DNA of 64,000 nucleotides from Aureimonas sp. AU4 (GTDB taxonomy: Bacteria; Pseudomonadota; Alphaproteobacteria; Rhizobiales; Rhizobiaceae), in the NCBI RefSeq assembly GCF_001463765.1, contig NZ_BBWK01000016.1:1-64000 (forward strand), read 5' to 3'. Shown here one piece after another: positions 6,910 to 55,333 of this stretch; within the stretch, counting starts at the first letter, position 1; each line of letters opens with the position of its first letter. A model generated the notes under the pieces. It was not told the origin of the DNA, made no database searches, and saw nothing but the letters and a program-made list of their open reading frames with translations. The translations under genes were made by a program, and so were the position numbers.

Positions 6910-6942
6910 GGTCGCGGAATGATTGGTAGCTGATGCATCCAG

Positions 6943-8557: not shown

Positions 8558-8634
8558 GCCGTTACTAAGGCTATCGACGAAAATCCCTTCTCAATCGATG
8601 GCATAGATCGACACGGGAATCCCTGGCCTGACTG

Positions 8635-8651
8635 TCTACTAGATGAGTAGA
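8635..8651. promoter_or_regulatory. 17-bp dyad TCTAC-N7-GTAGA upstream of the flavoprotein operon
   Basis: The sequence is TCTACT-AGATG-AGTAGA, a perfect 6-bp inverted repeat, ending 26 bp before the start of the flavoprotein gene. It has the T-N11-A form common for LysR-type sites. Near-identical dyads occur upstream of two other transcription units at 14277-14293 and 16186-16202, with the same 7-bp spacer. That makes a shared regulator likely. Confidence 0.65.
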
Positions 8652-8677
8652 TTGATGGCAGTTCGAAGGGGTAGATC

Positions 8678-10539: not shown

Positions 10540-10571
10540 CCCCGTCCCAGACATCCCAAAGGACCCAATCC

Positions 10572-11630: not shown

Positions 11631-11639
11631 GGCGGCGCG

Positions 11640-12485
11640 ATGTCGCTCCAGACCAAGGCGGTCACGACCGCACGCAGGCAAAGGGCGTCGGCAGCGCGCT
11701 GGCGCCCGCCCTTGCGCCTGAAGGACTCGGCGGCGGTTCGTTGGCTTCTGACCCTCATCGGTCCGGTTGCGATCCTCTGCCTGTGGCAGGCGGCGAGCGG
11801 TCTGGGACTCATGTCGTTGCAAGTCCTGCCGCCGCCGTCCCTGGTTTGGGAGACCCTGGTCGATCTCGCGCAAGCGGGCGACCTGTTTGTTAACCTGGCC
11901 TTATCGGCGCGGCGCATCCTCTTCGGGCTCGCAATCGGAGCGCCGCTCGGCCTTGCCTTGGGCTTGGCGCTGGCCCGATCGCAACGGCTCGAGGACTATT
12001 TCGGCCCAACCTTTCGAGCCCTTGCCGCCGTCCCGTCCCTCGGGTGGATTCCGGTGCTGATCCTGGTCCTCGGCATCGAGGAGTCGCTGAAGATTGTGAT
12101 CCTCGCCAAGGCCTGCTTCGTTCCGATGGCGATCGCCGCCATGGAGGGCGGGCGGGCCGTCCCGCGCGAGTTGTCCGAGGCAGCCGACGTCATGCGCCTG
12201 CGGCCCCTCTCCCGGTTCCGCCGGCTGACGCTTCCGGCCGCCACGCCGTTCCTGTTCCGCGGCCTGCGCCTCTCGGTCGGTCAGGCCTTCGTGTCGCTCG
12301 TCGTGGTGGAGATGCTCGCCGGCACGGACGGCATCGGCTATCTAATGGTGTGGGGCCGCACGCTCTTCCAGCTCGATCTGGTGATCGCCGGGATGATCGT
12401 GGTCGGCGCGACGGGTTTTGCGATCGACTCCTTCCTGCGCCATGCGGAGCGGTTGGTCGCGCGTCGGTATGGCGCCGATGTCTGA
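11640..12485 (+). CDS. ABC transporter permease, SsuC/TauC-like
   Basis: The 281-aa inner-membrane protein has six hydrophobic segments and the binding-protein-dependent permease signature (EAA loop) around AADVMRLRPLSRFRRLTLPAATPF in the last third. The starting region is cytosolic and basic. Together with the following permease it would form a heterodimeric channel for the substrate delivered by the SsuA-like protein. It starts 9 bp after the binding-protein gene and overlaps the next permease by 8 bp, so the operon is tight. Two different permease genes are unusual for simple sulfonate systems, which mostly use a homodimer. Confidence 0.9.
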   Translation: MSLQTKAVTTARRQRASAARWRPPLRLKDSAAVRWLLTLIGPVAILCLWQAASGLGLMSLQVLPPPSLVWETLVDLAQAGDLFVNLALSARRILFGLAIGAPLGLALGLALARSQRLEDYFGPTFRALAAVPSLGWIPVLILVLGIEESLKIVILAKACFVPMAIAAMEGGRAVPRELSEAADVMRLRPLSRFRRLTLPAATPFLFRGLRLSVGQAFVSLVVVEMLAGTDGIGYLMVWGRTLFQLDLVIAGMIVVGATGFAIDSFLRHAERLVARRYGADV

Positions 12486-13275
12486 GATCGCTTCCCCACC
12501 GACGCCTGCCACCACGGCAAGTCTCCGATACGTCCGGGGCGCCGCGGTTCCCGCAGCAGTGATCCTTCTTTGGATCGCCGCGGTCGCGTCCGGCATCTGG
12601 TCAGGACCGCTGGCCGTCTCGCCTGTCGACGTCGTCCTTGCCCCCTTCCTCGATCCCAACGGACGGCAGGTCTGGGAAGCACTCGTTCAGAGCCTCGCAC
12701 GGGTGGCGACTGGAGGCGTGCTGGGGGGACTGCTCGGTCTTACCGTCGGCGCCGCGTGCGGACTCTCCCGCTCCACAGGGCGTGCTCTGTCGCCCTCGCT
12801 CCACGCCGCGCGGCAGGTCGCCCTCTTTGCCTGGATCCCGCTGCTGACGGCGTGGTTCGGCAACGGCGAGACGACTAAGATCGCCTTCACCACCCTCTCG
12901 TGCTTCTTTCCGATCTTTCTTGCCACCGAACGCGGCATGCACGACGTCCTGCCCCGGCTGGCGGAGGTCGGCCACGCGCTCGCGCTCCGGCGCCGGACCC
13001 GTCTGCTCAAGCTCGTCCTGCCATCAGCACTTCCCTCGATCCGCATCGGCGTCGAAGTGGCGCTGATCTCGGCTTGGATCGGCACGGCGGGCGCCGAATA
13101 CGCCATCGGCAACGGACGGGGCGTCGGCAGCTTCCTTGCCAGCGCGCGCGACCAGTTCCGCATGGATCTCGTCGCGGTCGGTGTCATCGTCCTAGCCGGG
13201 GTGGGCGTTTCGCTCCACGCGCTATCGCGCGTGGCATTCAACCGAATGTTTCCCTGGCTGGAGGCGTCCCGATGA
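12478..13275 (+). CDS. second ABC transporter permease, SsuC/TauC-like
   Basis: The protein of about 265 aa has a hydrophobic segment near its start and five more, with an EAA-loop-like motif around VGHALALRRRTRLLKLVLPSALP. It is homologous to, but clearly diverged from, the permease gene just upstream. The overlap with the upstream gene makes the start uncertain between ATG 12469 and ATG 12478; I list the second. The stop overlaps the ATG of the ATPase gene (ATGA). Likely role: second half of the transmembrane channel for the sulfonate-type importer. Confidence 0.88.
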   Translation: MSEIASPPTPATTASLRYVRGAAVPAAVILLWIAAVASGIWSGPLAVSPVDVVLAPFLDPNGRQVWEALVQSLARVATGGVLGGLLGLTVGAACGLSRSTGRALSPSLHAARQVALFAWIPLLTAWFGNGETTKIAFTTLSCFFPIFLATERGMHDVLPRLAEVGHALALRRRTRLLKLVLPSALPSIRIGVEVALISAWIGTAGAEYAIGNGRGVGSFLASARDQFRMDLVAVGVIVLAGVGVSLHALSRVAFNRMFPWLEASR

Positions 13276-14021
13276 GCGCGCTCGAACTTCGCGGCGTCAC
13301 GAAGGACTACCGGGTGGATGGCCTGCCGGTCCCCGTGCTGAGAGGGGTGAACCTCGACGTGCAGGAGGGCGAGATCGTCGCCATCCTCGGCGCTTCGGGA
13401 TGCGGCAAGTCCACGCTTCTGCGACTCGTCGCCGGTCTCGACCGCGATTATTCCGGAAGCGCGAGAGCGGAGGGACGCGACATCGTAGGGCCCGACACCG
13501 ACCGCGGCCTCGTGTTCCAGGACCACCGCCTGTTTCCGTGGCTGACGGCGGCCGAGAACGTCGACCTAGCGCTGGACAGCCTCGGCCTTGACGCGGCGGA
13601 GCGGAGCGAACGGGTTCGGCGCCACCTCGACCTCGTCGGCCTTACCGAATTCGCACGAGCCTATCCCCGCCAGCTTTCGGGCGGCATGGCCCAGCGCGCG
13701 GCCATCGCCCGGGCGCTCGTGACCGAGCCGCGCGTCATCCTCATGGACGAGCCCTTCGGCGCCCTCGACTCGTTCCTCCGCATGCGCCTGCAAGAGGAAC
13801 TGCTCCGGATCTGGGAACGTCGCGCCGTCTCGATCGTCATCGTCACCCACGACATCGAGGAGGCCCTATTCCTGGCCGATCGCGTGGTCGTCATGGCCTC
13901 TCGACCCGGACGTATCGTCGAGACGGTTGCCGTCGACGCGCCCCGTCCCCGCGACCGCAACGGTGCCGAACTGGTCGAACTCAAACGCCATCTTCTGTCG
14001 GGCCTGGGATCGCAGCACTAA
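13272..14021 (+). CDS. ABC transporter ATP-binding protein, SsuB/TauB-like
   Basis: The 249-aa ATPase has Walker A GASGCGKST (40-48), the Q-loop FQDHRLFPWL, the ABC signature LSGGMAQR, Walker B VILMDEPFGALD and the switch His in VTHDIEEA. These match the SsuB/TauB/NrtD branch, including the FPWL and FGALDSFLR hallmarks. It energises import through the two permeases encoded upstream, with which it overlaps by 4 bp. It ends the first transcription unit; a gap of nearly 400 bp follows before the next gene. Confidence 0.93.
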   Translation: MSALELRGVTKDYRVDGLPVPVLRGVNLDVQEGEIVAILGASGCGKSTLLRLVAGLDRDYSGSARAEGRDIVGPDTDRGLVFQDHRLFPWLTAAENVDLALDSLGLDAAERSERVRRHLDLVGLTEFARAYPRQLSGGMAQRAAIARALVTEPRVILMDEPFGALDSFLRMRLQEELLRIWERRAVSIVIVTHDIEEALFLADRVVVMASRPGRIVETVAVDAPRPRDRNGAELVELKRHLLSGLGSQH

Positions 14022-14398
14022 AGCGGTCGGAGATGCCTGTTTGACCGCGCGCGTCGCAATCAGATCGTACGACGCGTTTCATTCGGTGCGAGCCGCAAAG
14101 GATGCTCGGCCACGCGGCATGCATGGTCCGCCCGTTCCCGACGGGAAAAGGATGCCGAGATCGCATGATCTTGGCAGCGACCCTGGGCCAATACCGGAAG
14201 GTATTGGCGACACATGACACGCGCCATGAGGACGCAACCGCAGACCGGGCAATGCAACGAACTGCAAGCTCGACAGTCTATTTTTTTCATAGATAAATAA
14301 GGAGGATCAGTGCCGAATTGGTGAGCGAGGGCATATGCAGAAGTCGGACATGGGGACTGTTGTGGTTCCCTCGGCATCGCGCGGCGACGCCTGACGAG
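14022..14398. other. intergenic region before the FAD/NAD(P) gene
   Basis: No gene is seen here. The distal half holds the shared dyad (14277-14293) within an AT-rich patch, and then a strong Shine-Dalgarno-like AAGGAGG at 14299-14305. In-frame alternative starts TTG 14318 and GTG 14321 lie 12-16 bases behind this ribosome site and would add 26-27 residues to the downstream protein. Confidence 0.45.
14277..14293. promoter_or_regulatory. 17-bp dyad TCTAT-N7-ATAGA upstream of the FAD/NAD(P) gene
   Basis: TCTAT-TTTTTTC-ATAGA: 5-bp arms with the same 7-bp spacer as the copies upstream of the flavoprotein operon and the peptide-type importer. The T-rich spacer and the neighbouring ATAAATAA suggest that it overlaps a promoter. 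It lies about 25 bp before the earliest possible start of the downstream gene, the same distance as the first copy. Confidence 0.6.
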
Positions 14399-15790
14399 AT
14401 GCTGGCCGGACGGATCCTGATCATCGGCGGGGGCGCGAGCGGCGTCTTGCTGGCAGCGCAGCTCCTTCGGCTTGATACGAATAAGGTTGCCGTAACGATC
14501 ATCGAGCGCCGTGCCGAGATTGGCGCCGGCATCGCCTACTCGACCGATCATCCCGACCTTCTCCTCAACACCCGCACCGCGGGCATGAGTGCCTTCCCCG
14601 ACGATTCGGATCACTTCCTCCGCTGGCTTCGCGACAACAGCCAAGACCATACGCAGGACCTTCTCGATCCCGCCGGCTTCGTCCCGCGCCGCGTCTACCG
14701 GGACTATCTACGCGGTCTCCTGGATCCCTGGGCGAATCGTAGCGACGGTCGCCTTCGCGTCGTACATGGCCAGTGCGTCCGGCTGGAGAAGACGCCGGGA
14801 GCGATCCGCGCGATCCTTGCGGACGGGAGCGAGGAGGAGGCCGACGCAGTCGTGCTCGCGACGGGACATGCCGAGCCCCGGCATGCATCCGGCGCCCGCA
14901 TCTCTGGTCCTTGGTGCAGCGCGGACGAACTGTCGATCGCTCCTGACGATGCGGTTCTCATACTCGGCACCGGACTGTCGATGGTCGACAACGTCGCGCT
15001 TCTGAGACACCGAGGCCATCGCGGGCCGATCACCGCGGTATCGCGCCGGGGCCTGTTGCCTCAAATCCACGCATCGGCGGCAACGATCCGGATCGAGGCC
15101 GCCGACGTCCCCTTCGGCGCCCGTCTCTCGGAGCTGACACGCTGGCTGCGCGACGTAGCTCGGATTGCGTCCGAACACGGCGGCGACTGGCGCGGCGTCG
15201 TGGACGCGTTGCGCCCCCACATGGGCACTCTCTGGCAGTCCATGCCGATCGAGACGAGACGCCGCTTCCTGCGCCATGGCCGCACGTTCTGGGAAGTCCA
15301 CCGTCATCGGATGGCGCCGCAGGCCGCCCGCATGATCCGCGATGCCATGGCATCGGGACAGTTGCGGGTGGTGGCAGGTCGCATCCATCCCGGTTCGCTT
15401 ACAGGACATGGATCCCGCGTCACGTTGACCGAGCGCGGAGGAGAAACGCGAACGGTTCCCGCGGATCGCATCATCGACTGCACCGGTATCCTTCGCGATC
15501 CTACCACCGGCAGCGGCCATCTCGTTGCCGAGCTGATCCAGAAAGGTCGCGCTCGCCTCGACCCGCTCGGCATCGGGATCGATGTGCAAGAGGACGGTTC
15601 GGTTATCGACGAGGAAGGCACGCCCTCGTCACGCCTATTCGCCGTCGGGCCAGTGACGCGGGCGCGTTTCTGGGAGATTACGGCCGTCCCCGACATCCGA
15701 GTCCAGTGCGGGAAGCTTGCCGCGACGTTGGTGGAAAGCGTGCGAACGAGCCGGTCTCGGTCAGCGGCGAGCCCATCTTCCAACGCATGA
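14399..15790 (+). CDS. FAD/NAD(P)-binding protein (NAD_binding_9 type, lysine/ornithine monooxygenase-like superfamily)
   Basis: The protein starts with the dinucleotide-binding motif ILIIGGGASGVLLAAQLL, followed by IIERRAEIGAGIAYST, the hallmark of the FAD-NAD(P)-binding (PF13454-like) family. A second nucleotide-binding site appears at VLILGTGLSMVDNV about halfway, and FAVGPVTRARFWEITAVPDIR closes the FAD fold. Members are found in sulfur-starvation and siderophore contexts; the reaction is not known. ATG 14399 matches the usual family start directly before the first beta strand. The in-frame TTG/GTG at 14318/14321 sit after a good AAGGAGG and remain an alternative. It is a single-gene unit between two importer operons and carries the same upstream dyad. 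Confidence 0.82.
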   Translation: MLAGRILIIGGGASGVLLAAQLLRLDTNKVAVTIIERRAEIGAGIAYSTDHPDLLLNTRTAGMSAFPDDSDHFLRWLRDNSQDHTQDLLDPAGFVPRRVYRDYLRGLLDPWANRSDGRLRVVHGQCVRLEKTPGAIRAILADGSEEEADAVVLATGHAEPRHASGARISGPWCSADELSIAPDDAVLILGTGLSMVDNVALLRHRGHRGPITAVSRRGLLPQIHASAATIRIEAADVPFGARLSELTRWLRDVARIASEHGGDWRGVVDALRPHMGTLWQSMPIETRRRFLRHGRTFWEVHRHRMAPQAARMIRDAMASGQLRVVAGRIHPGSLTGHGSRVTLTERGGETRTVPADRIIDCTGILRDPTTGSGHLVAELIQKGRARLDPLGIGIDVQEDGSVIDEEGTPSSRLFAVGPVTRARFWEITAVPDIRVQCGKLAATLVESVRTSRSRSAASPSSNA

Positions 15791-46268: not shown

Positions 46269-47072
46269 ATGGCATCCACCACCCCGCCGCTGACGAAGAC
46301 GTACCCCAGCGGCGAGTCATACCGAAGGATGGACGTCGTCGAGGAGCAGATAGCGGTGCTGTCCGAGATGGGCTTCGAGGAAGTCCTGCGCAGGGCGGCG
46401 GTGACGTCCCGGACGGATCCGGAGTTCTTGCGGCCCGAAACGCTCATGCATTTCCTGCGGGCAACGAGACGGGACAATACCGAGCGGCGGTTCACCGCCC
46501 TCTTCCCGTTCGTCCTGCGCCGCCTCCTCCTCGCCCTGCCGCGCGGGGAGAGACGCACGGCAGCGGGAACCGCGGCCGACGCCTTCGGGCTGGACTTGAT
46601 CGACGCGGTTCGCGTGCGTTTCGTGAACCTCGTCTCCGTGGACAGGGCCGGGGGCGACAGGATGGACTTCTACGAGGTCCACTTCGACGAGGCGGTGGCC
46701 GGCCTGCGGATGAAGGCCTGGGGCCGGCTTCGCGCCAGGGCCGCACGAACGGTGGGGCTTGAGACGGATCCCGAGAGCGGCGAACTGCCGGACGCCGTCG
46801 AGCGCGCTGCCGGAAGCCTCGATGACGGTGCCGAGGACTTTTTTTCGGACCCGAGTCACCGGGAGCGAGTGAGGCGGGGTATTGACCACCTGAAACCAGA
46901 ACAAAGGGAGGTCATGCTGATGTCGCTTGCCAACATCCCGACCGAATCCAGCGATCCGAACGTTGCGTGCATCAGCGGCTTGCTGGGATGCGACCCCAGC
47001 ACGGTTCGATATCGCAGACGGCGTGCCGTCAAGCGCCTCCAAGAAATGCTGGCCGCGGGAGAACTGAATTGA
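46269..47072 (+). CDS. sigma-70-like transcription regulator (267 aa), first gene of the ubiquitin-like operon
   Basis: The C-terminus has a sigma-70 region-4-like HTH: GIDHLKPEQREVMLMSL, then ISGLLGCDPSTVRYRRRRAVKRLQEML, the typical arrangement of ECF and sigma-70 region 4. The middle resembles region 2 in helical content (FTALFPFVLRRLLLAL and the MDFYEVHFDEAV segment) but is diverged. No CxxC anti-sigma binding motif is seen. It is longer than typical ECF factors (about 180 aa). It opens a tightly spaced plus-strand array, since its TGA overlaps the next gene. It may switch on the downstream peptidase-helicase and ubiquitin-like genes; this is inference. Confidence 0.65.
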   Translation: MASTTPPLTKTYPSGESYRRMDVVEEQIAVLSEMGFEEVLRRAAVTSRTDPEFLRPETLMHFLRATRRDNTERRFTALFPFVLRRLLLALPRGERRTAAGTAADAFGLDLIDAVRVRFVNLVSVDRAGGDRMDFYEVHFDEAVAGLRMKAWGRLRARAARTVGLETDPESGELPDAVERAAGSLDDGAEDFFSDPSHRERVRRGIDHLKPEQREVMLMSLANIPTESSDPNVACISGLLGCDPSTVRYRRRRAVKRLQEMLAAGELN

Positions 47073-47638
47073 GTGCGCAAGCCCTCCCGGCGGACCTGAT
47101 GGACGCGTTCGCGTCCGCCTACCTCGACGACCCGCAGGCCTTGCAGCGCTACGTCGCGCTTCACCCGGGCCACGCCGGATCTTTCGTGGCCTACGCCCAT
47201 GAGATCGAGCTCCAGGCCGCGTGCAGGGACGAAGCGGCGATCACCGCCGACGACGAGGCCTGGATCGCCGCTCAGGTGGCCGCGCTCGCGCAGGCGACGG
47301 CCGTCGATCCCTTCGCCCGCTTGAGCGGCGCCGACTACCAAGCCGCCCGCAGGGAACTCGACGTGCCCTCCTCCGTGCTGACCGCGTTCCGCGACCGGCT
47401 CGTGACGCCCGCCAGCGTCCCGCTGCCGTTCCTCGACCGGCTTGCTGGACTTCTCGGCGTGGGCCTCGCGGAGCTGGCGGCGTTCCTGAAGGGACCGCCC
47501 CGGTTGGCTGCCGCGGTCTCCTACAAGGCTGACGGCGCCCCTGCGGCACCTCCCGAGAAGATCCCCTTCGCCTCGGTGCTGGCGGACGCCGACATCTCCG
47601 GCGACAGGCTGGACGCCTTGCTCGACGAAGGCGACTGA
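47069..47638 (+). CDS. small HTH-like protein (189 aa), partner of the peptidase-helicase gene
   Basis: No named family is recognised. The protein is acidic and helical. A central part (about residues 95-145; VPSSVLTAFRDRLVTPASV and LDRLAGLLGVGLAELAAFL) looks like an XRE-type or anti-sigma-like helical domain, and a short C-terminal repeat (SVLADADISGDRLDALL) follows. It would be the sort of DNA-binding or inhibitory partner that ImmA/IrrE-type peptidases cleave. Two starts are possible: TTG 47069, overlapping the sigma-like stop, or ATG 47099. I list the first. It lies 3 bp before the fusion gene. Confidence 0.55.
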   Translation: MSAQALPADLMDAFASAYLDDPQALQRYVALHPGHAGSFVAYAHEIELQAACRDEAAITADDEAWIAAQVAALAQATAVDPFARLSGADYQAARRELDVPSSVLTAFRDRLVTPASVPLPFLDRLAGLLGVGLAELAAFLKGPPRLAAAVSYKADGAPAAPPEKIPFASVLADADISGDRLDALLDEGD

Positions 47639-47641
47639 GCC

Positions 47642-50600
47642 TTGGACGCCATCGAGCTCGGCAGGCAGGCCGCGGCCCGGCTGCATGATGAACTGGTCGC
47701 GAAGGGGGTCGATCCCGACGATCCGCTTGCCATGGTGATGGCGGAGGCGGAACGGCGCGGAGTCGAGGTCAACCCCATCAGGGCGGGGAGCCCGCTGCTG
47801 GCCGGCGCCCGAGCGAGTTTCGATCCGGCGACGCGGAGCATCCGCCACGAGCGGACGGGCAGCCGTTTCGGGGACGCGTTCCTCGTCGCGCACGAACTCG
47901 GCCACGTCGCGCTCGGCGACGACAGCGTCCACGACGAGGTCGGGTCGGTCGACATGGCACGGCCGGCGGAGGCCGCCCCCGTCGGGGAGGAGCGCGTCGC
48001 CGACTACAGCCGCAAGGCCCGGCGGGAGATCCAGATGGACCTCTTCGCCCGGGAGTTCCTCCTTCCTCGCCCGAGGGCCCGCCGCTTGCATCTGGCGGAC
48101 CGCCTGACTGCAACCCGGATCGCCGAGAGGCTGGGAGCGCCGTTCGACGTCGTTGCCCAACAGCTTCTGGATGCCCTCCTGCTTCCGGCGCAGGTCCCGC
48201 CCCCGCCGCCGGAAGCCCCGGCACCCCTCACCGAGGAGCAACGGACGGCCGCCGGTCACCGCGGCGGCGCCTACCTCCTCGAAGCGGGTCCCGGCACTGG
48301 CAAGACGAAGACGTTGGTCGCAAGGGTCGCGGGCCTCGTCGCGGAGGGAGCGGATCCGCGGTCCATCGTGGTCCTCACCTACTCCAATAGGGCAGCCGCG
48401 GAACTCTCGACCCGGCTTGCGGCCTCGGACGCGGAGGCCGCAGCCGCGATCTGGATCGGAACGTTCCACGCTTACGGCCTGAACCTCATGCGGCGCTTCC
48501 ATGCGGAGATGGGGTTCCGGAGCGAGCCGCGCCTGATCGACCGCACCGACGCTATCGCGCAACTCCTGGAACGGATCGCGGCGCTGGACCTCCGGCACTA
48601 TCGGGACCTTTACGATCCGACCGCCGACCTTAGGGACATTCTCGGCGCCGTATCACGCGCGCAGGACGAGGTCATGTCGGCCCCGGCGTACGAGGTCCTC
48701 GCCGAGACGATGCTGGGAAGGGCCGGCACCGATCCCGACGCGCTGGCGGCTGCGGAGCGCGTGCGCGAGGTGGCGAGGGTGTATCGATGCTACGACGACC
48801 TCAAGCGGGCACAGGGGCGCGTCGACTTCGGTGACCTCGTGGCGGGTTGTGTCACGTTCCTGGAGGCACGCGACGACATCAGGAACAGCGTGCGCTCCGG
48901 GATCCGGCACGTCCTCGTCGACGAGTACCAGGACGTCAACCGGGCCAGCGTCCGGCTGCTCAAGCTGATCACCGACGGAGGGCGCAACCTGTGGTGCGTC
49001 GGCGACGTGCGGCAGTCGATCTACCGCTTCCGCGGGGCCTCCTCCTTCAACATGGGGCGGTTCAAGAGCGTCGACTTTCCCGGCGCCGACGGATCTCGGC
49101 TGACCTTGAACCACCGGTCCCACAAGGAGATCGTCGACGCCTATTCGGCCTTCGCCGACCGAATGCCCGTCGAGGGCTCGGACGGCCACGCCATGGAGGC
49201 CAAGCGCGGGCCGGCGGGCGTTCCGGTCGAGTTCAGGTTGGTCGCGGGCGACGGCACGGCAGAGATCGACGAACTCGCCGCATCGATCGAGGCGTTCCGG
49301 TCCGAGGGACGGTCCTACCGCGACCAAGCGGTCCTCTGCACAGGCAACGACCGCCTTTCCAGGATCTCGGCCGGGTTGGAGGCGCGCGGCGTCCCGGTCC
49401 TGTACCTGGGAAACGTGTTCGAGCGTCCCGAGGTGCGCGATCTCCTGGCCTGGCTGTCGCTTCTCTGCGATCCGCGTGCGATGGGGCTGGCGCGCGTATC
49501 GCCCCTTCCCGCGCTCGCCATGGACCTGGCTGACGTCGCAAGGGTCCTGGACCATGCGCGTGACCGCGACGGGGAACCGCTCGACTGGTGCAGGGACACG
49601 CCTCCCGACGGCTTGGGCGAGCGGGCGCGGGGATCGGTCGAGAACCACGAGCGGATCTCCCGGGGCTTGGGCCCGACATCGGATCCCTGGACGGCAACCG
49701 CCCTCCTCCTTCTCGACCGCAGCGGACTTGCCGCGTCGCTGTCCGAGGACGAAAGCGTGTCCGGGCGCTCCAAGGCCATCGCGGTCTGGCAGTTCATGAA
49801 CTTCGCACGGACCCAACCCGGCGGCGGCCCGCGCGTGCAACACCTGCTCGAGAGGATACGGCGGATCTCCCTCCTGTCCGACGACCGCGAGCTGCGCAAC
49901 CTGCCGGCTGCGGCGAACGGCATCGACGCGGTCAGGCTCATGACGATGCACGGCAGCAAGGGACTCGAGTTCCCGGTCGTCCACCTGCCCGGCATGAACT
50001 CCGACACGCTCCCGCGCCCCCCGAAGGCACCGGCCTGCCCGCCGCCCGTGGGCATGGTGGAGGGCGCGGCGTCCGGCGGGCGGGACGTCACCGACCGCGA
50101 GCACCGTGAAGAGCAGGAGTGCCTGTTCTACGTCGCGATGTCGCGCGCTCGGGACCGTCTGGTGCTCTACGCGGCGGAGAGGAGGTCGGACGGGGCATCC
50201 CGGCCGCGATCGCCCTTCGTCGAGCGGCTGGGGGCGGCCCTCGACCGCACGAAGGCGCATCCTCCCAGGATTGTGGACGACGAGACCGTCGCCCCCGTGG
50301 ACGTTATGTTCAACCCCGGATTGACGATCACGCAGGCGCAACTCGCGCTCTACGAACGATGCCCTCGGCGCTACTTCTACACGCACGTCCTGCGCGTGGG
50401 CGGACGCCGGGTCTCGACGGCCTTCATGGACATGCACGAGGTGGTCCGGAAGGTGACCTCGACGCTGTCGGCGGACCCGGCGCTCCCGTCGACGGCCGAC
50501 GCGGTGCGGACGCTGCTCGACCTTCATTGGGCCGCGTCGCCCCTCTCGGCGATTCCGGTCGAGGCGGGGTACCGGAGGGTCGCCGACGAGCTGCTCGCGT

Positions 50601-51034
50601 TCTTCCTGCTCAGCCGCGCCGGGCGGACGAGCGGTCCACCGGAACGGCTCAGCTTCGCCGCCGGGACGGCAACGGTGACCGTGGACGCCGATGAGACGTC
50701 GAACGACGGCGGCAAGACGTACAGGAGGATCCAGACGGGACATCACTCGTCGACGGCGTCCAAACTGAAGGCGCACGACGCCTTTCCGATCGCGGCTTCC
50801 CGTGCCTCGCCGGGAAGCCGGACGGAGATCGTCTACCTCTCCGACGGGGCGGTGAAACCCGTGGCGCCCAGGCCGAGGCAACTTGCCAAGCGGATGGCGG
50901 AGATCGAGACCGAGGTCGCGAACATCCTGGCTGGCCGTTTCCCCGCCAAACCCTCGGCCTACCAATGCCCGAAGTGCCCATGCCTCTTCGTGTGCGGCCC
51001 GCTGCCGCCCGGACGGCTGGAAAAAAAAGCTTGA
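47642..51034 (+). CDS. ImmA/IrrE-type metallopeptidase - UvrD helicase - cysteine-cluster nuclease-like fusion (1130 aa)
   Basis: The N-terminal about 185 residues form an ImmA/IrrE-like zinc peptidase with HELGH (84-88) and FAREFLLP as the third-ligand region. An SF1 UvrD/PcrA-type helicase follows: Walker A AGPGTGKTK (215-223), DEYQD (427-431), GDVRQSIYRFRGA (454-466), MTMHGSKGLEF (767-777) and VAMSRARDRL (831-840). The last about 230 residues look RecB/AddB-like. YERCPRRYFY (904-913) and a CPKCPCLFVC cluster (1109-1118) give the four or five Cys needed for an Fe-S cluster. The DxK nuclease residues, however, are not clear. The TTG start at 47642 follows the previous gene by 3 bp. Likely DNA-damage or foreign-DNA processing with proteolysis. 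Confidence 0.82.
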   Translation: MDAIELGRQAAARLHDELVAKGVDPDDPLAMVMAEAERRGVEVNPIRAGSPLLAGARASFDPATRSIRHERTGSRFGDAFLVAHELGHVALGDDSVHDEVGSVDMARPAEAAPVGEERVADYSRKARREIQMDLFAREFLLPRPRARRLHLADRLTATRIAERLGAPFDVVAQQLLDALLLPAQVPPPPPEAPAPLTEEQRTAAGHRGGAYLLEAGPGTGKTKTLVARVAGLVAEGADPRSIVVLTYSNRAAAELSTRLAASDAEAAAAIWIGTFHAYGLNLMRRFHAEMGFRSEPRLIDRTDAIAQLLERIAALDLRHYRDLYDPTADLRDILGAVSRAQDEVMSAPAYEVLAETMLGRAGTDPDALAAAERVREVARVYRCYDDLKRAQGRVDFGDLVAGCVTFLEARDDIRNSVRSGIRHVLVDEYQDVNRASVRLLKLITDGGRNLWCVGDVRQSIYRFRGASSFNMGRFKSVDFPGADGSRLTLNHRSHKEIVDAYSAFADRMPVEGSDGHAMEAKRGPAGVPVEFRLVAGDGTAEIDELAASIEAFRSEGRSYRDQAVLCTGNDRLSRISAGLEARGVPVLYLGNVFERPEVRDLLAWLSLLCDPRAMGLARVSPLPALAMDLADVARVLDHARDRDGEPLDWCRDTPPDGLGERARGSVENHERISRGLGPTSDPWTATALLLLDRSGLAASLSEDESVSGRSKAIAVWQFMNFARTQPGGGPRVQHLLERIRRISLLSDDRELRNLPAAANGIDAVRLMTMHGSKGLEFPVVHLPGMNSDTLPRPPKAPACPPPVGMVEGAASGGRDVTDREHREEQECLFYVAMSRARDRLVLYAAERRSDGASRPRSPFVERLGAALDRTKAHPPRIVDDETVAPVDVMFNPGLTITQAQLALYERCPRRYFYTHVLRVGGRRVSTAFMDMHEVVRKVTSTLSADPALPSTADAVRTLLDLHWAASPLSAIPVEAGYRRVADELLAFFLLSRAGRTSGPPERLSFAAGTATVTVDADETSNDGGKTYRRIQTGHHSSTASKLKAHDAFPIAASRASPGSRTEIVYLSDGAVKPVAPRPRQLAKRMAEIETEVANILAGRFPAKPSAYQCPKCPCLFVCGPLPPGRLEKKA

Positions 51035-51127
51035 GACCTTTCCCGGGTCGGGGCGAACCCGGGGATTGATCCTTCACAAGCGGCCGAAACCTTCCTCCAA
51101 CAGCGGCCGCGGAGAAGGAACGACACA

Positions 51128-51856
51128 ATGAAAGACGACATCGACCGCCCGGACCGCGACGAGGGCAAGGGACGCGGCCCCAAATCCAAGATGAAGTTCC
51201 TCCTCGCCGTCGACTCGGTGGACTTCAAGTCACTCGAAACGAACGATCCGATCCTGCTCGGACGCCAGGTTCTCGAGAAGCGCGGCCTGCGGCCGCCGGA
51301 ATCCTTCAGCCTGTTCAACATCCTCCCGAGCGGCGACTTCGAGGACGTGCGCCCGGACGAGGAGCTCGACCTGCGCGAGGACGGCGTCGAGCGGCTCGTC
51401 GCCTTCTCGACGGACCGCGTCTTCCGCGCGACGCTGAACGGGCGGGTCATCGCCTGGGGAGCTGGGACCATTCCCGAGAGCGCCCTCCGCCTTCTTTCGG
51501 GCGTCGGCCCGGACGAGGCGGTCTTCCTCGAGATCCGCGGCGGCACCGACCGCTTAATCCCCGAGGGCGGGCACGCCGACCTGAACCCGAACGGCACCGA
51601 GGCGTTCATCACGGCACCGAAGCCGAAGCGCTACGTCTTCGTATTCAACGGGAAGCGGTACGAGAGCGCCGAGCCGCGCCTCACCGGGGCGCAGATCAAG
51701 GCCCTGATCCAGAACTGGAACCCCGAGCACGACCTCCTGCTCGAGGGCCACGGGAACGAACCAGATCGCGTCGTCGCGGACGACGAGCTTGTCGACCTTG
51801 CCGAACTGCACGGCCCGGTTCGCTTCTCGCAGGTTCCCAAGGCGAACTTCGGCTGA
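51128..51856 (+). CDS. multi-ubiquitin-domain protein (242 aa, three beta-grasp repeats, C-terminal Gly)
   Basis: The sequence contains three beta-grasp segments in tandem: about residues 22-93 (KFLLAVDSVDFKSLE), 94-165 (RVFRATLNGRVIAWG) and 166-242 (RYVFVFNGKRYESAE, then DLLLEGHG). This is the multiubiquitin family. The last residue is Gly (ending KANFG), as expected of a ubiquitin-like modifier that an E1 can adenylate without prior cleavage. A charged, disordered N-tail precedes repeat one. ATG 51128 has GAAGGAACGACACA in front. The stop overlaps the E2 gene start by one base. Function: likely modifier or scaffold protein of the E1/E2 encoded downstream. Confidence 0.87.
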   Translation: MKDDIDRPDRDEGKGRGPKSKMKFLLAVDSVDFKSLETNDPILLGRQVLEKRGLRPPESFSLFNILPSGDFEDVRPDEELDLREDGVERLVAFSTDRVFRATLNGRVIAWGAGTIPESALRLLSGVGPDEAVFLEIRGGTDRLIPEGGHADLNPNGTEAFITAPKPKRYVFVFNGKRYESAEPRLTGAQIKALIQNWNPEHDLLLEGHGNEPDRVVADDELVDLAELHGPVRFSQVPKANFG

Positions 51857-52242
51857 TGCACGCGGTCACGGAACGCCAGTTGGCGGACCTGGGGGAGCGG
51901 TTCGCGACCGTCGACGCGACGCCGCTCCCCGACGGTTCCGTTCTCGTCAGGATCCACGACGTCGCCCTCCCCCCGGGCTGGTCGGCCGGCACGACGAACG
52001 TCCTGTTCGTCGTGCCGGCCTCGTATCCCTTCGCCGCACTCGACTGCTTCTGGACGGACGGGAGCCTCACGCTCGCGTCCGGCGTGGCTCCGCAGAACAC
52101 GGCCATCAACCCGATACCCGGCGTGCCGCATGAACCCCTTCTCTGGTTCTCCTGGCACCTCACGGGCGCCTGGGACCCGAACCGGGACACCCTGTCGGGC
52201 TGGATGAACTCCGTGCTCGAACGCATGAGGAGAGCGACATGA
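51856..52242 (+). CDS. prokaryotic E2 family E (Prok-E2_E) ubiquitin-conjugating-like protein (128 aa)
   Basis: The protein has the UBC-like layout of the Prok-E2_E group: LPPGWSAGTTNVLFVVP and ASYPFAALDCFW strands, a LLWFSWHLTGAWDP block and a final helix. There is exactly one Cys, residue 64, just after the YP turn, in the position where family members have their conserved Phe/Trp/Cys. It is the only candidate thioester residue. Its ATG overlaps the stop of the multi-ubiquitin gene, and its stop overlaps the E1 gene, so all three are translationally coupled. It would accept the activated modifier from the E1. Confidence 0.83.
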   Translation: MHAVTERQLADLGERFATVDATPLPDGSVLVRIHDVALPPGWSAGTTNVLFVVPASYPFAALDCFWTDGSLTLASGVAPQNTAINPIPGVPHEPLLWFSWHLTGAWDPNRDTLSGWMNSVLERMRRAT

Positions 52243-53585
52243 GCGGACTACGTTTCTCCAGCCCAGGCTTCGGCGACCTCCGCGCCGCGCTCCTCGCGGA
52301 CAGCACGGTCGAGGGTTGCGCCGCTGTCTTCGCCCGCTGGAACCGCGACGCGTCCTCGTGGGTCGTCTCCGACTGGGAGATGGCGCCGGAGGCGGCATAC
52401 GAGCGGCGCGACAGGGTCTCGGCGATTCTCCGCGGAGCCTATCTCGCGGACCTCGCCAACCGCTCGCGGACGCGGGGCCTATCACTCGTCCTCGCCCACA
52501 CGCATCCCGACGCCGTCGGGACGCCGCGCTTCTCGCCCGTCGACGATGCCGGCGAGAGGGAGATGGCCACGTTCCTCGGTCGGCGCGCCCCCGTCGGCGG
52601 ACACCTGGCGCTCGTGGTCGGCCCACTGGGCTGCCGTTGTCGCTTGATGGGGACGGGCGGGGACGTGCCTGTCTGGGAGATCGGCGAGAATGCCATCCTG
52701 CGTTCGGGCCTCGGCGGCACCGCCGCCCCCTCCACGGAACATGATCGCCAGGTCCGCGCGTTCGGCGCGTTGGGCCAGGCGATCATGGGAGACCTGGATG
52801 TCGTCGTCGTCGGCGCCGGGGGCACGGGTTCGGTCGTGCTCCAGCAACTGGCGCATCTCGGGGTTCATCACCTGACCGTCGTCGATCCCGACGTCGTCGA
52901 AACGACGAACCTCAACCGCCTCGTCGGAGCCCGTCCCGGGGACGTCGGCTCAGCCAAGGTCGATGTCGCGCGCCGCGCCGTCCTGGCCGTCAACCCTCGA
53001 GCGCGGGTCGAGGCGATACGGGCGGACATCGTGGACGATGCGACGGCGGCCATCCTGCCCCGCTTCGACTTCGCGTTCCTTTGCACGGACTCCCATGCCA
53101 GCCGCGCGGTGGTCAACCAAGCCGCCTACCAGCATCTGGTGCCGACCATCGACATGGGCGTCAGCATCACGGTCGGCGCGGAAGGCGTCGAGCACGTCAA
53201 CGGCCGGGTTCAGATGCTGGCTCCCGGGATGACCTGCCTGACCTGCACGCGGGCCCTCGACGCGGAACGGATCCGGCAGGAGATGCTGACGCCGGAGCAG
53301 CGTGCGGCGGACCCCTACGTTCAAGGCGTGCACGAGCCGCAGCCCGCCGTCATATCGCTCAACACGACGATGGCCTCCCTCGCCGTAACGATGTTCCTTG
53401 GCGCGGTCACGCCCGTGCCGTCCACCGCGCGCTTCCTTCTCTACGATGGCATCAGGGGTACGGTGCGCCCGACCGTCGCCAGGTCCCATCCCCACTGCAT
53501 CGTCTGTTCGCCGGACGGCGCGTTGGCACGGGGCTCGCAATGGCCCCTTCCGACAAGGCCGGCGGGAGGCCGCGTTGCGGCTTGA
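52239..53585 (+). CDS. JAB (JAMM) peptidase - ThiF/E1-like adenylating enzyme fusion (448 aa)
   Basis: Residues about 1-155 form a JAB domain with the JAMM motif HTHP (87-90), then S99 and D102. Residues about 170-430 form an E1/ThiF-like fold with nucleotide motif GAGGTGS (192-198), VVDPDVVETTNLNR and FLCTDSHASRAV, and zinc-binding pairs CLTC (333-336) and CIVC (420-423). One chain therefore carries both the modifier-adenylating and the modifier-removing or processing activity. It overlaps the E2 gene by 4 bp. This JAB-E1 form with a multi-ubiquitin and an E2 is a recognised bacterial ubiquitin-like arrangement. It has no separate catalytic-Cys domain. Confidence 0.9.
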   Translation: MSGLRFSSPGFGDLRAALLADSTVEGCAAVFARWNRDASSWVVSDWEMAPEAAYERRDRVSAILRGAYLADLANRSRTRGLSLVLAHTHPDAVGTPRFSPVDDAGEREMATFLGRRAPVGGHLALVVGPLGCRCRLMGTGGDVPVWEIGENAILRSGLGGTAAPSTEHDRQVRAFGALGQAIMGDLDVVVVGAGGTGSVVLQQLAHLGVHHLTVVDPDVVETTNLNRLVGARPGDVGSAKVDVARRAVLAVNPRARVEAIRADIVDDATAAILPRFDFAFLCTDSHASRAVVNQAAYQHLVPTIDMGVSITVGAEGVEHVNGRVQMLAPGMTCLTCTRALDAERIRQEMLTPEQRAADPYVQGVHEPQPAVISLNTTMASLAVTMFLGAVTPVPSTARFLLYDGIRGTVRPTVARSHPHCIVCSPDGALARGSQWPLPTRPAGGRVAA

Positions 53586-53843
53586 GGCCTGCGCGGAAGC
53601 GCCCGCCGCCGCGGCTCGCCTCGCACCCTCGCGTGCCGGAACGGAACGGTCCCGTGATCCGGATCGCAGCATGCGGGAGGAATCGTTGGACGATCCCCCG
53701 GAGCGGCCCGTTCCGGCGGGATGTCCGATACCGTTGCCCGTCGCGAGACCTCAGCCGATCGGCTTGCCGGCGCCCGACGCGGGACGGTGCGCGCCCAACA
53801 GCGGTCGCCGCCCCACGAAACGACAAAACGGAAGGTCCGTCCG

Positions 53844-54365
53844 ATGAGCGAACCCGCAAGACGGCTAAGACTGGTCGGAGCCGCTCCCTACCGCGAGGAG
53901 GCGGAAGCCCTCCTGGAGCGACCTGGCGATGCATCCCTCGTCGAGAGAGGCGTTACACGCGCGATGGTGTTGAGGTGCCCCGACGGTTGCGGCGAGACCC
54001 TGGTGGTGAACCTCGATCCCCGCTCGGGCAAGGCGTGGCGGCTGGACCGGCGTCAGAACTCCACCACAGTTTACCCGTCGGTCTGGCTCGACGGGGGGTG
54101 CAAGAGCCACTTCATCGTCTGGAGGGACACCATCTTATGGTGCGACCGGTTCGAGGACGGCAATGTCGAGCCTGCCTACGACCCGGCGCTCGAGGATGCC
54201 GTCCTGGAAGCCGTTCCGTTCGACAGGGATGTCGGGCCGGCCGAAGTCGGCGACGCGTTGGACGCGTTGGCCTGGGACGTCGCCAAGGCGCTGCGCCGCC
54301 TCGCATTGCGGGGTGCGGCGCAAGAAGGTGTGGGTCGCGCCCGCGGACGCTACCGCAGGAGGTGA
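53844..54365 (+). CDS. DUF6527-like zinc-binding protein (173 aa)
   Basis: The protein matches DUF6527, a family that I recall beside multi-ubiquitin/E1 genes. The core is MVLRCPDGCGETLVVNL (two Cys plus one in the following strand), VYPSVWLDGGCKSHFIVW and TILWC, giving a Cys-rich zinc knuckle. The tail is basic and helical. The start is ATG 53844 after GAAGGTCCGTCCG; frames upstream are not needed. A 258-bp gap separates it from the JAB-E1 gene, in which nothing else is supported. It may be a substrate-recognition or E3-like partner; this is a guess. Confidence 0.75.
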   Translation: MSEPARRLRLVGAAPYREEAEALLERPGDASLVERGVTRAMVLRCPDGCGETLVVNLDPRSGKAWRLDRRQNSTTVYPSVWLDGGCKSHFIVWRDTILWCDRFEDGNVEPAYDPALEDAVLEAVPFDRDVGPAEVGDALDALAWDVAKALRRLALRGAAQEGVGRARGRYRRR

Positions 54366-55260
54366 AGTCGGTCAAAGGGCCTGTGGGGTGGGGGTCGGAT
54401 GCGGACCGACTTCGCCGCCATGGTCACGTCCGCCGATCCGCGACGCGATCCTCGGTTTCGACTTCTCATGTATGTCGGCGATCGTGACGTTGGACATCGT
54501 GAAAAATCCGACCGCCGGCCCCGCGATCTACAAGTTCATCCACCTGCCATCCGAGAAGGCGCCTTGGGGGAAGTCCCCAATGGCACGCAGCCGGACGAAA
54601 CGACTCACGCCGACCAACTCCGCCATGCCTATGCCGAGGCCGCGGGGGCGGCGTTCGTGGCATTCAAGGAGGTGGCCGCGATCCTGGCCACGGCCGCCAC
54701 TTCGGTCGTCAGCGGACCCGCTACTGTGAGGCCGAGTCCTCTGCAAGGTTCACAGGGACAACACCGCATCCGGCGCGACCGATATTTTCGAGACGGACGT
54801 CTTCTGTCGTGTCGTCGAGGCGCATGTAGACGGCCCGGTGTCAGGGTGTCAGTACACCTCGGCGCATAAGTTCATGGCGAAGGTCCCGAGCTTGGTTATG
54901 CGTTCCTCGCGGTGCGATTTGGCAGTCCCTTCCAGGCGGCCGCCAAGCTGGCCAGCCGACGATTCGCGAACCTTCCAAAAATCCTGACTTCGTTTCAGGA
55001 GATAGTTCGCGAGCAGTCGTTTCAATTTCACCCAGCATCTGCAACGTTACGGAATCACTGGTTGGGCGAGAATGTGGCAATGGTGGAATTGTCTACCGAA
55101 GAACGCCACCAAAAAATTCTGGATCAAGCGAAATCAACCACTTATCGGCGTGTTGCGTCATTGTGAAGTCACGATCAAAGTCAGTTTTTTTGGAAAAAAA
55201 TCAGGATTTTTGGAAATAAGGTCGCTGTAATTTGGAAGCGACAGCTTACTAGTTTTACGG
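54366..55260. other. gene-poor junction between the ubiquitin-like cluster and the tRNA
   Basis: About 900 bp. Two adjoining frames near 54470-54750 give coding-like pieces (IVKNPTAGPAIYKFIHLPSE in one frame, then GTQPDETTHADQLRHAYAEA and FVAFKEVAAILATAA in another). They probably are a frameshifted remnant, but no family was recognised. The last 200 bp are AT-rich. No copy of the tRNA 3' end was seen, so an attachment site cannot be placed. Confidence 0.35.
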
Positions 55261-55333
55261 TGGGCCCGGCAGGACTCGAACCTGCAACCAAGCGGTTATG
55301 AGCCGCCGGCTCTGACCATTGAGCTACAGGCCC
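55261..55333 (-). tRNA. tRNA-Ile2 (CAU anticodon, lysidine-modified type)
   Basis: The complement folds into a full cloverleaf. The acceptor is GGGCCTG pairing with CGGGCCC, and the D-arm is GCTC...GAGC. The anticodon stem is GGCGG/CCGCT with loop CTCATAA (anticodon CAT), and the T-arm GCAGG-TTCGAGT-CCTGC. The T- and anticodon-stem features match tRNA-Ile2 rather than elongator or initiator Met; the CAU is read as Ile after lysidine modification. The encoded 3' end is A, then CCG, so CCA is added post-transcriptionally. It marks the border between the accessory and core DNA. Confidence 0.92.

What the first reader, a model, noticed from the sequence alone, without database searches (positions are those of the whole stretch)
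46269..54365. Ubiquitin-like conjugation operon coupled to a sigma-like factor and a peptidase-helicase fusion
Seen: seven plus-strand genes with overlaps or gaps of a few bases at most joints (47072/47069, 47638/47642, 51856/51856, 52242/52239). They encode a sigma-70-like protein, a small HTH-like protein, an ImmA/IrrE-UvrD-cysteine-cluster fusion, multi-ubiquitin, Prok-E2_E, JAB-E1 and DUF6527. Known: the multi-ubiquitin/E2/JAB-E1 core is a recognised class of bacterial ubiquitin-like operon, and related bacterial Ubl systems act in phage defence. Inference: the sigma-like and peptidase-helicase genes form a sensing and response arm that would add transcriptional and DNA-processing control. 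I do not recall this combination being described.
Basis: partly seen in the sequence, partly recalled or inferred. Interest (0 to 1): 0.9.

Follow-up and report, generated by a model that had tools for sequence, protein, structure and literature searches.

The report
Sigma-switched bacterial ubiquitin-like operon
A bacterial ubiquitin-like protein-tagging operon travels with its own likely transcription switch (a sigma-like factor, a small partner protein and a protease fused to a DNA motor), and shared promoter-like signals suggest that this switch serves that operon, probably after DNA damage.

Summary
Genes: P1 (sigma-like), P2 (weak HTH), P3 (M78 peptidase–UvrD–Fe-S domain), then multi-ubiquitin, E2, JAB-E1 and DUF6527, a Bub-type (6e) core; E2 and JAB-E1 match solved BubB and BubCD. 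In 89 related loci P2 is found in 89, P1 in 88, multi-ubiquitin in 83. In two even draws 8 of 8 genomes with P2 or P3 (the window's included) have multi-ubiquitin beside it.

New here: a two-part promoter-like motif, TTACCGG-N16-CGATT, lies before multi-ubiquitin and inside the P1 gene before P2-P3, there with codon constraint. In the draws both sites occur in 5 of 7 module loci (two of them also among the 89) and none in 13 loci without the module. A structured leader with covariation follows.

Loci without the module often carry an M78 gene (8 of 13, one weak) or a CapKS-like pair (1), kinds known as DNA-damage controllers of Bub operons. I infer that P1-P3 is another: damage activates P3, which cuts P2 and frees P1. 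P3's nuclease motif is lost (present in 0 of 85). Activity, trigger and phage defence are untested; the main Bub papers were not held.

The parts
46269..47072 (+). P1: sigma-70-like protein, 267 aa; region 4 recognised, region 2 not recognised by any profile
   Evidence: Pfam Sigma70_r4_2 E 3.2e-6 over cut-off; Sigma70_r4_2 at E <= 0.1 in 37 of 48 homologues and no region-2 family in any; AlphaFold2 pLDDT 90.1; best PDB profile match FliA E 0.009
46856..46883 (+). promoter-like site inside the P1 gene, upstream of P2-P3; degenerate in this copy (TCACCGG-N16-GTATT) and outside both scan patterns
   Evidence: 216 bases before the P1 stop, the place where homologues have the motif; homologues show codon constraint there
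47069..47638 (+). P2: small helical protein, 189 aa, weak Xre/Cro-type HTH, conserved SYKAD..KP tail; overlaps P1 by 4 bases
   Evidence: Pfam Xre-like-HTH E 0.0025 below cut-off; AlphaFold2 pLDDT 89.7; Foldseek matches to SinR/DdrO/Cro HTH over about 48 residues, all E above 1; present in 89 of 89 loci
47642..51034 (+). P3: M78 (ImmA/IrrE) peptidase, UvrD helicase and Fe-S PD-(D/E)XK-like domain fusion, 1130 aa; nuclease motif lost
   Evidence: Pfam; HExxH, Walker A and Fe-S cysteines conserved, [DE]xK[TS]G in 0 of 85 copies over 1050 aa
51040..51067 (+). promoter-like site TTCCCGG-N16-GGATT in the P3-P4 gap
   Evidence: only match of TTNCCGG-N16-SGATT in the 4.49 Mb genome; a gap site in 76 of 89 loci by the relaxed pattern (letters)
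51064..51127 (+). structured 5' leader of the multi-ubiquitin mRNA; ribosome-binding site predicted paired with its 5' end
   Evidence: z -4.4 for this copy; 60 leaders mean z -3.57 against -0.24 for 120 random segments; SD letters paired; covariation in 22 homologues
51128..51856 (+). P4: three beta-grasp domains, ends in PKANFG; BubA-like ubiquitin-like protein
   Evidence: Multi_ubiq E 5.9e-35; PDB 9cd2 multi-ubiquitin domain protein E 2e-17, also BilA 8u38 E 5.9e-14; C-terminal glycine
51856..52242 (+). P5: Prok-E2_E, BubB-like E2
   Evidence: Pfam E 9.1e-8; PDB 9eae_C Citrobacter BubB E 5.4e-4
52239..53585 (+). P6: JAB (JAMM letters HTHP...S..D) fused to a ThiF-type E1, BubCD-like
   Evidence: ThiF E 9.9e-45; PDB 9ea4 Citrobacter BubCD E 1.1e-25
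53844..54365 (+). P7: DUF6527, metal-binding-like protein C-x3-C-x36-C-x2-H (frame open from 53721)
   Evidence: Pfam E 1.3e-15; Cys/His pattern in 77 of 77 homologues found

Best explanation
P1-P2-P3 is a dedicated control module of a Bub (type 6e) ubiquitin-like operon. P1 is a diverged ECF-like sigma factor that reads a two-part promoter (consensus TTACCGG-N16-CGATT) at two places: inside its own gene, giving P2 and P3, and before multi-ubiquitin, giving the conjugation genes (supported by comparative genomics, not by experiment). P2 keeps the system off by binding P1 (anti-sigma) and/or the promoter (inferred). P3 is a DNA-damage sensor: its UvrD motor and catalytically dead Fe-S domain engage DNA ends or single strands, which activates the M78 peptidase to cut P2 (inferred by analogy with CapH+CapP). 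P1 is then freed, P2-P3 expression rises and the ubiquitin-like pathway is switched on, with a leader hairpin adding a translational check (structure supported, role inferred).
For: Module and Ubl core go together in even draws: P2 profile in 7 of 398 genomes (one, E 9.9e-4 in a 723-aa frame, dropped as spurious), the other 6 all with Multi_ubiq 3.5-3.8 kb away (in the window itself likewise); P3 at E <= 1e-60 in 3 of 289 class genomes, all 3 with Multi_ubiq. In 89 loci: P1 88, P2 89, P4 83, P6 84, P7 77. Strict motif: 113 matches in 1.49 Mb, 110 at the two sites by my count, spacer 16 in 109. Relaxed motif: both sites in 64 of 89 loci, one in 19, neither in 6; 147 matches at the sites, 44 elsewhere, 14 in all after mononucleotide shuffling. 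Codons at the internal site: TAC 68 of 68 Tyr, CGG 70 of 81 Arg, GCG 76 of 77 Ala, ATT 68 of 81 Ile against 23% ATT for Ile in P3. Motif with the sigma: both sites in 5 of 7 fetched module loci of the draws, no match in 13 loci without the module. 39 of 50 strict matches in 24 genomes lie at the locus. Displacement: 8 of 13 Ubl loci without the module have an M78 gene, 1 a CapKS-like pair. M78, helicase and Fe-S residues conserved. Leader structure and covariation. P1, P2 and P3 distances correlate at r 0.94 (common descent alone can give this).
Against: No profile recognises sigma region 2 in any of 48 P1 homologues, and Foldseek gave no significant sigma match (best 4oio_F, E 0.16). P2 has no significant similarity to anti-sigma factors or repressors and no cleavage site is known. 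The motif was defined on the same 89 loci in which it was first counted; of the 7 module loci, L191 and L192 are the genomes of L019 and L020, so the fresh test is 4 of 5, and L188 has the same gap-site letters as L084. L186 and L192 have neither site by that pattern. The window's own internal site is degenerate. The sites could be bound by P2 rather than read by P1. The codon test is not corrected for relatedness, and unrelated columns also rank high. 11 of 50 strict matches lie elsewhere in the 24 genomes (3 in the reversed-pattern control), so a wider regulon is possible. In the leader test the number of pairs with changes on both sides (7) is equalled by one slid version. Nothing here measures DNA damage response, proteolysis, transcription or conjugation.
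Confidence: 0.6

Rival explanations
1. P2 is the DNA-binding repressor of the two sites (a CapH equivalent) and P1 is not a working sigma factor but a second DNA-binding partner; cleavage of P2 by P3 then de-represses promoters read by the housekeeping sigma.
For: Xre/Cro-type HTH hints in P2; CapH+CapP logic (PMC13373217, section 5); no region 2 found in P1.
Against: The motif is an asymmetric two-block element with an almost fixed 16-base spacer (109 of 113), which from general knowledge suits an ECF promoter better than a dimeric HTH operator. Whether a housekeeping promoter overlaps the sites was not tested.
Confidence: 0.2
2. P1-P3 is a stand-alone defence or repair unit (helicase-based) that merely co-locates with Bub in defence islands and on plasmids.
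For: UvrD-Cas4 fusions occur in other defence contexts (PMC5704561, passages); 92 plasmid records carry P3.
Against: 8 of 8 genomes of the draws keep the Ubl genes beside it; motif before both parts; correlated distances P3-P4 r 0.82, P3-P6 r 0.75; nuclease motif lost.
Confidence: 0.08
3. P2 and the M78 part of P3 form a toxin-antitoxin-like pair that stabilises the cassette, as proposed in 2016 for COG2856/Xre pairs beside multi-ubiquitin genes.
For: 70% of PF14452 proteins were reported beside such loci (PMC4963859, passages).
Against: It explains neither the promoter motif, the sigma-like gene nor the helicase; CapP is described as an ssDNA-activated protease that cleaves the repressor CapH (PMC13373217, section 5).
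Confidence: 0.07

Closest known systems
Bub (bacterial ubiquitination-like) pathways; operon type 6e of Iyer et al. 2006
   Same: multi-beta-grasp Ubl, Prok-E2_E, JAB-E1, metal-binding protein; best PDB matches are BubB (9eae) for P5, BubCD (9ea4) for P6 and multi-ubiquitin proteins (9cd2 and others) for P4; 6e description read in PMC1779556 section 14
   Different: [quoted passage not shown] the two main Bub papers could not be read. 58 of the 84 module loci with an E1 hit have no E2 hit
CapH+CapP (HTH repressor and ssDNA-activated M78 protease)
   Same: M78 peptidase plus small HTH-like partner beside a Bub-type operon; inferred proteolytic release
   Different: the peptidase is fused to UvrD and an Fe-S domain, the partner is not a clear HTH, and a sigma-like gene with its own motif is added
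CapK+CapS
   Same: DNA-damage controller in the same position before Bub operons; a similar pair seen in L179
   Different: kinase and STAS repressor, unrelated proteins
ECF sigma factor with a co-transcribed anti-sigma factor (general knowledge)
   Same: region 4, two-part motif with 16-base spacer, overlapping downstream partner gene
   Different: region 2 unrecognised; inferred release by a DNA-motor-linked protease; promoter-like site inside the sigma gene
UvrD-Cas4 (pfam12705) and AddAB/RecB helicase-nucleases
   Same: UvrD helicase followed by an Fe-S PD-(D/E)XK domain
   Different: N-terminal M78 domain; catalytic DxK not found in any long copy examined

Membership tests
Bub / type 6e ubiquitin-like operon | Ubl with one to three beta-grasp repeats | tested here: met
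   three Multi_ubiq stretches; PDB 9cd2 E 2e-17, but BilA 8u38 also E 5.9e-14, so this row alone does not tell Bub from Bil
Bub / type 6e ubiquitin-like operon | Prok-E2_E / BubB-like E2 | tested here: met
   Pfam E 9.1e-8; 9eae_C E 5.4e-4
Bub / type 6e ubiquitin-like operon | E1 with N-terminal JAB (BubCD-like) | tested here: met
   9ea4 E 1.1e-25 and JAMM letters; Prok-JAB itself below Pfam cut-off
Bub / type 6e ubiquitin-like operon | small metal-binding protein | tested here: met
   DUF6527, C-x3-C-x36-C-x2-H; the 2006 signature reads C-x3-C-x35-38-H-x2-C, last two letters swapped
Bub / type 6e ubiquitin-like operon | covalent conjugation of the Ubl | not testable with these tools
   needs biochemistry
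ECF-like sigma factor (P1) | sigma region 4 | tested here: met
   over cut-off in the window; E <= 0.1 in 37 of 48 homologues
ECF-like sigma factor (P1) | sigma region 2 | tested here: inconclusive
   no Pfam match in 48; short weak match to RpoE 2q1z E 0.39; confident helical model without significant fold match
ECF-like sigma factor (P1) | cognate two-part promoter | tested here: inconclusive
   strong comparative support, no transcription experiment
CapH+CapP controller | separate M78 gene with intact HExxH | tested here: not met
   HExxH intact in 89 of 89 but fused to UvrD
CapH+CapP controller | HTH repressor cut by the peptidase | not testable with these tools
   HTH weak; cleavage untested
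AddB/RecB/UvrD-Cas4 nuclease | Fe-S cysteines C...CxxCxxxxxC | tested here: met
   22 of 22 aligned; CxxCx5C in 83 of 89 by pattern, the six misses being shortened, cut or mis-called frames
AddB/RecB/UvrD-Cas4 nuclease | catalytic [DE]xK | tested here: not met
   present in 0 of 85 copies over 1050 aa, against IVDYKTG in this genome's own AddB-like protein
Anti-phage defence system | protection against phage | not testable with these tools
   PMC13373217 states that this is not demonstrated for Bub

The most novel reading that the evidence does not exclude
A new class of DNA-damage switch: a helicase-protease fusion senses damaged or foreign DNA through a dead Fe-S nuclease-like domain and, by cutting a small inhibitor, releases a sigma factor devoted to one ubiquitin-like conjugation operon, with an intragenic feed-forward promoter and an SD-hiding leader, carried by plasmids and chromosomes of several phyla.
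Probability: 0.5. Interest if true: 0.87.

Novelty: new variant of a known kind. Interest (0 to 1): 0.78.

Why it matters
If right, it names the signal path that turns on a widespread bacterial ubiquitin-like system of unknown function, and shows a kind of sigma-factor control in which a DNA motor fused to a protease is the sensor. It also gives a promoter motif that predicts the targets, so the question of when Bub systems act becomes directly testable with a reporter. The same module stands before two cores (E2 plus JAB-E1, or a DUF6791-type E1 without E2 or JAB hits), which suggests that control and effector parts are exchangeable.

Tried and rejected
Chance adjacency: rejected. Phage origin: none of 60 pattern-matched stretches in the viral contigs encodes a relative of P3's N-terminal part, and there was no P3 match in 50,697 phage records at E 1e-60. 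A tRNA-bounded island: tRNA-Met lies at 55259-55333, but no att-like direct repeat stood out among the 20 families shown; the flanking phosphoesterase gene was found in only 3 of 60 other family genomes at E 1e-40, so no empty site was pursued. P3 as a nuclease: judged unlikely on the missing motif. hhalign against this genome's AddB and AddA gave nothing, apparently because my script took the longest open frame; MAFFT with the right frame misplaced the motif, so the comparison was made by eye on the shared TG. PDB searches with the C-terminal domain and with the M78 part gave no useful match. MAFFT of 45 leaders was not structure-aware, and RNAalifold on 22 found only 6 outer pairs; the fuller structure came from one leader's fold, which favours the paired-cells count. 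The RNA model R1 was built but not used. Within-locus pairing of the two sites in 11 loci beat its 20 shuffles by two letters in L202, by one in L192, L020 (one genome) and L097, tied in L045 and failed in the other six, the window among them. Literature: searches listed no paper that describes the sigma/M78-UvrD module with multi-ubiquitin; each lists at most 20 papers, several out of many hundreds. The two main Bub papers (PMC12885553, PMC12145246) and the CapH/CapP paper are not held, so prior description there cannot be excluded. Seen: PMC13373217 abstract, passages, sections 5 and 7; PMC1779556 passages and section 14; PMC4963859, PMC5704561 and PMC11354881 passages.


Full report
What is there. 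P1 carries sigma region 4. P2 is a small protein with a faint Xre-type HTH. P3 joins an M78 (ImmA/IrrE) peptidase, a UvrD helicase and an Fe-S PD-(D/E)XK-like domain. P4 is multi-ubiquitin with three domains and the C-terminus PKANFG; P5 is Prok-E2_E; P6 a JAB-E1; P7 DUF6527. By sequence the closest solved structures are a multi-ubiquitin domain protein for P4 (9cd2, E 2e-17; BilA 8u38 follows at 5.9e-14), Citrobacter BubB for P5 (9eae_C, E 5.4e-4) and Citrobacter BubCD for P6 (9ea4, E 1.1e-25). P7 was not compared with solved structures. The ubiquitin-like core is thus Bub-like and of the 6e type described in 2006 (PMC1779556, section 14).

Do genes 1-3 belong to it? I scanned one genome for each of 84,980 species with the N-terminal part of P3: 259 relatives, the best 80 kept. 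With 6 plasmid regions that I chose from 92 records and 3 loci from the class draw (one is the window itself) this gives 89 loci. With profiles built up from these same loci, P1 is found in 88, P2 in 89, P4 in 83, P6 in 84 and P7 in 77. The order is the window's, except in L023, where the Ubl genes are divergent and P1 has no hit. The six loci without a P4 hit are two where the contig ends in P3 (L040, L063), three with a shortened P3 (L042, L054, L088) and L052, which keeps P6; the three class loci are cut too short to hold P7. Record titles span alpha-, beta- and gammaproteobacteria, Myxococcus, two verrucomicrobial and one planctomycete MAG and a cyanobacterial plasmid; one archaeal MAG contig (L050) may be a binning error. 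This set is ranked by likeness to the window, so I also used even draws.

Even draws. In 398 genomes of the phylum the P2 profile matched 7; I dropped one (G606, E 9.9e-4, inside a 723-aa frame). The other 6 are all among the 15 genomes with Multi_ubiq (2 of the 15 below Pfam's cut-off). In 289 genomes of the class P3 matched 3 at E <= 1e-60 (two candidates scored per genome) and Multi_ubiq 8 (one below cut-off), the 3 included. Together 8 distinct genomes have the module, the window's own among them, and 8 of 8 have the Ubl core next to it. I fetched the 7 others, all with P1, P2, P3, P4 and P6 hits, and 13 of the 14 Ubl loci without the module (G527 was not fetched). Three of the most diverged plasmid relatives of P1 (L200-L202, 30-33% identity) sit before a hypothetical gene in the P2 place and a UvrD-type gene. 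L202 goes on with multi-ubiquitin and a separate Mov34/MPN gene; L201 has a ThiF gene further on; in L200 an insertion-sequence gene follows the helicase.

What stands there instead. Of the 13 Ubl loci without P1-P3, 8 have an M78 gene close by (L174, L176 as an HTH-M78 fusion, L177 at E 0.0017 below cut-off, L178, L181-L184); five of these also have a separate Xre-type gene (L174, L178, L182-L184). L179 has an HATPase gene and a winged-HTH gene, which I take for a CapK-CapS-like pair, although Pfam did not match a STAS part. L173 has a RES-domain gene and L185 a gene alike by eye. In L175 and L180 I recognised nothing by eye and scanned no neighbour. PMC13373217 reports CapW or CapH+CapP at 219 of 544 Bub operons and CapK+CapS at 59, all DNA-damage controllers; PMC4963859 reported in 2016 that 70% of PF14452 proteins lie beside COG2856/DUF955 loci. 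Where P1-P3 is present, its M78 domain stands in for the separate gene. This is the main reason to read P1-P3 as a controller.

A promoter-like motif. The gap between P3 and P4 holds TTACCGG-N16-CGATT in many loci. A strict pattern gave 113 matches in the 1.49 Mb of the 89 loci: by my count 58 in the gap, 52 inside P1 (mostly 213-222 bases before its stop) and 3 elsewhere; 109 have a 16-base spacer. A relaxed pattern finds both sites in 64 loci, the gap site alone in 12, the internal site alone in 7 and neither in 6. It has 147 matches at the sites and 44 elsewhere, against 14 in all after mononucleotide shuffling. The internal site lies in coding sequence (Y-R ... A-I), so I tested codons in 83 unique P1 genes: TAC 68 of 68, CGG 70 of 81, GCG 76 of 77 and ATT 68 of 81, while Ile in P3 uses ATT in 889 of 3849. 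The five motif columns are among the 14 most biased of 243, but other columns rank as high, and relatedness is not corrected for. In the even draws both sites occur in 5 of 7 module loci and no match in 13 loci without the module. L191 and L192 are the genomes of L019 and L020, so the fresh part is 4 of 5; L186 and L192 have neither site. In 24 genomes that I chose, 39 of 50 strict matches lie at the locus and 11 elsewhere, against 3 for the reversed pattern. In the window's own genome the only match of TTNCCGG-N16-SGATT is at 51040-51067. Its internal site (46856-46883, TCACCGG-N16-GTATT) is degenerate.

A leader. I could cut out 74 leaders from the -10 block to a start codon set by rule. 60 unique ones fold with mean z -3.57 (50 below -2), against -0.24 for 120 random segments of the same loci (8 below -2). 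In 41 of 60 the SD-like letters pair, with probability above 0.5, with the first 18 bases. On 22 alignable leaders 15 cells show changes on both sides of a pair, against 3.0 plus or minus 1.5 in shuffles and 4 to 7 when slid; the count of pairs with such a change (7) is equalled by one slid version. The test structure came from one leader's fold. In several gammaproteobacterial leaders the SD is outside the stem. The window's leader has z -4.4 and its SD is predicted paired.

P3. HExxH is intact in 89 of 89 (87 in the first 150 residues, 2 further in because the frame starts earlier). Walker A is present in 88 of 89 by pattern, and the four Fe-S cysteines are invariant in 22 of 22 aligned. The nuclease signature is gone: 0 of 85 proteins over 1050 aa have [DE]xK[TS]G in the last 250 residues, where this genome's AddB-like protein has IVDYKTG; the window reads RRIQTG. 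A DNA-binding sensor fits better than a nuclease.

P1 and P2. AlphaFold2 is confident for both (pLDDT 90.1 and 89.7), but Foldseek gave nothing significant. The best P1 match is 4oio_F, a chain of a Thermus initiation complex that I take to be sigma A (E 0.16). P2 matches Cro/SinR/DdrO-type HTH domains over about 48 residues with E above 1; DdrO is, from general knowledge, the substrate of an M78 peptidase. Sigma region 2 was not recognised in any of 48 homologues. In 75 loci the P1, P2 and P3 distance matrices correlate at 0.94, P3-P4 at 0.82 and P3-P6 at 0.75; joint descent alone can give such values.

Two cores. 26 of 89 loci have a Prok-E2_E hit, in L039 from a second core upstream; 23 of the 26 show the JAMM pattern (L018 and L021 have cut or split E1 frames). 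58 have an E1 hit but no E2 hit, and 1 of these 58 shows JAMM. In the three of these that I scanned, the E1 is DUF6791 plus ThiF (ThiF below cut-off in one) without JAB. Of 40 printed P4 C-termini 13 end in PKANFG, 18 in QS, 5 in RS or KS and 4 otherwise. P3 nearest neighbours share the core type in 72 of 75 loci.

Mechanism and verdict. Supported here: conservation of the unit, the two motif sites with codon bias and their link to the module, the structured leader, and the loss of the nuclease motif. Inferred: P1 reads the sites, P2 inhibits, M78 cuts P2, DNA damage triggers P3, and the output is Ubl conjugation under stress or infection. I put the whole chain at 0.6 and the sigma-promoter step higher. 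I found no description of this module in the listings searched, but the two main Bub papers are not held there.

Noticed in passing
L045, L025, L048 (scanned) among 58 loci without an E2 hit: A second Ubl core uses a DUF6791-ThiF E1 and a multi-ubiquitin that ends in QS or similar rather than glycine, with no E2 or JAB hit; its chemistry is unclear.
   Followed up: partly
P1 genes of 83 loci, alignment columns 313-319 after the internal -10 block: Further strong codon bias (CTA and CCA, then AGG/AGA for Arg) downstream of the internal site is unexplained; perhaps part of the P2 transcript's leader.
   Followed up: no
window 51984-52020: A perfect 16-base inverted repeat with a 5-base loop lies inside the E2 gene.
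   Followed up: no
window 55259-55333: A tRNA-Met gene on the minus strand lies about 0.9 kb downstream of the cluster; no att-like repeats stood out.
   Followed up: partly
L202 (Rhizobium beringeri plasmid) 4777-15280: Two Ubl operons flank one sigma gene, one on each strand; the P1-P3 side has a separate Mov34/MPN gene.
   Followed up: no
L039 (Sideroxydans MAG) 2637-6879: A second Ubl core with E2, E1 and DUF6527 hits lies upstream of the module.
   Followed up: no
L023 (Robbsia andropogonis plasmid) 3839-11423: Ubl genes are divergent from the module and the P1 slot holds a different protein that looks sigma-like by eye but has no Pfam match.
   Followed up: partly
L021 (Rhizobium sp. C104 plasmid) 6652-7436: The P1 gene is split over two frames.
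   Followed up: no
L081 at 7543 and L099 at 14910: Extra copies of the motif: 80 bases upstream of P1 in L081 (spacer 17) and after DUF6527 in L099, suggesting further regulated transcripts.
   Followed up: no
L173, L185: A RES-domain gene (in L185 by eye only) sits beside Ubl cores that lack the module.
   Followed up: no
24 genomes: 11 strict motif matches lie outside the locus; whether any is a real target was not settled (one looked at, L110).
   Followed up: partly
plasmid collection: P3 relatives at E 1e-60 occur on 92 of 72,556 plasmid records, 45 of them Acinetobacter, but in none of 50,697 phage records.
   Followed up: partly
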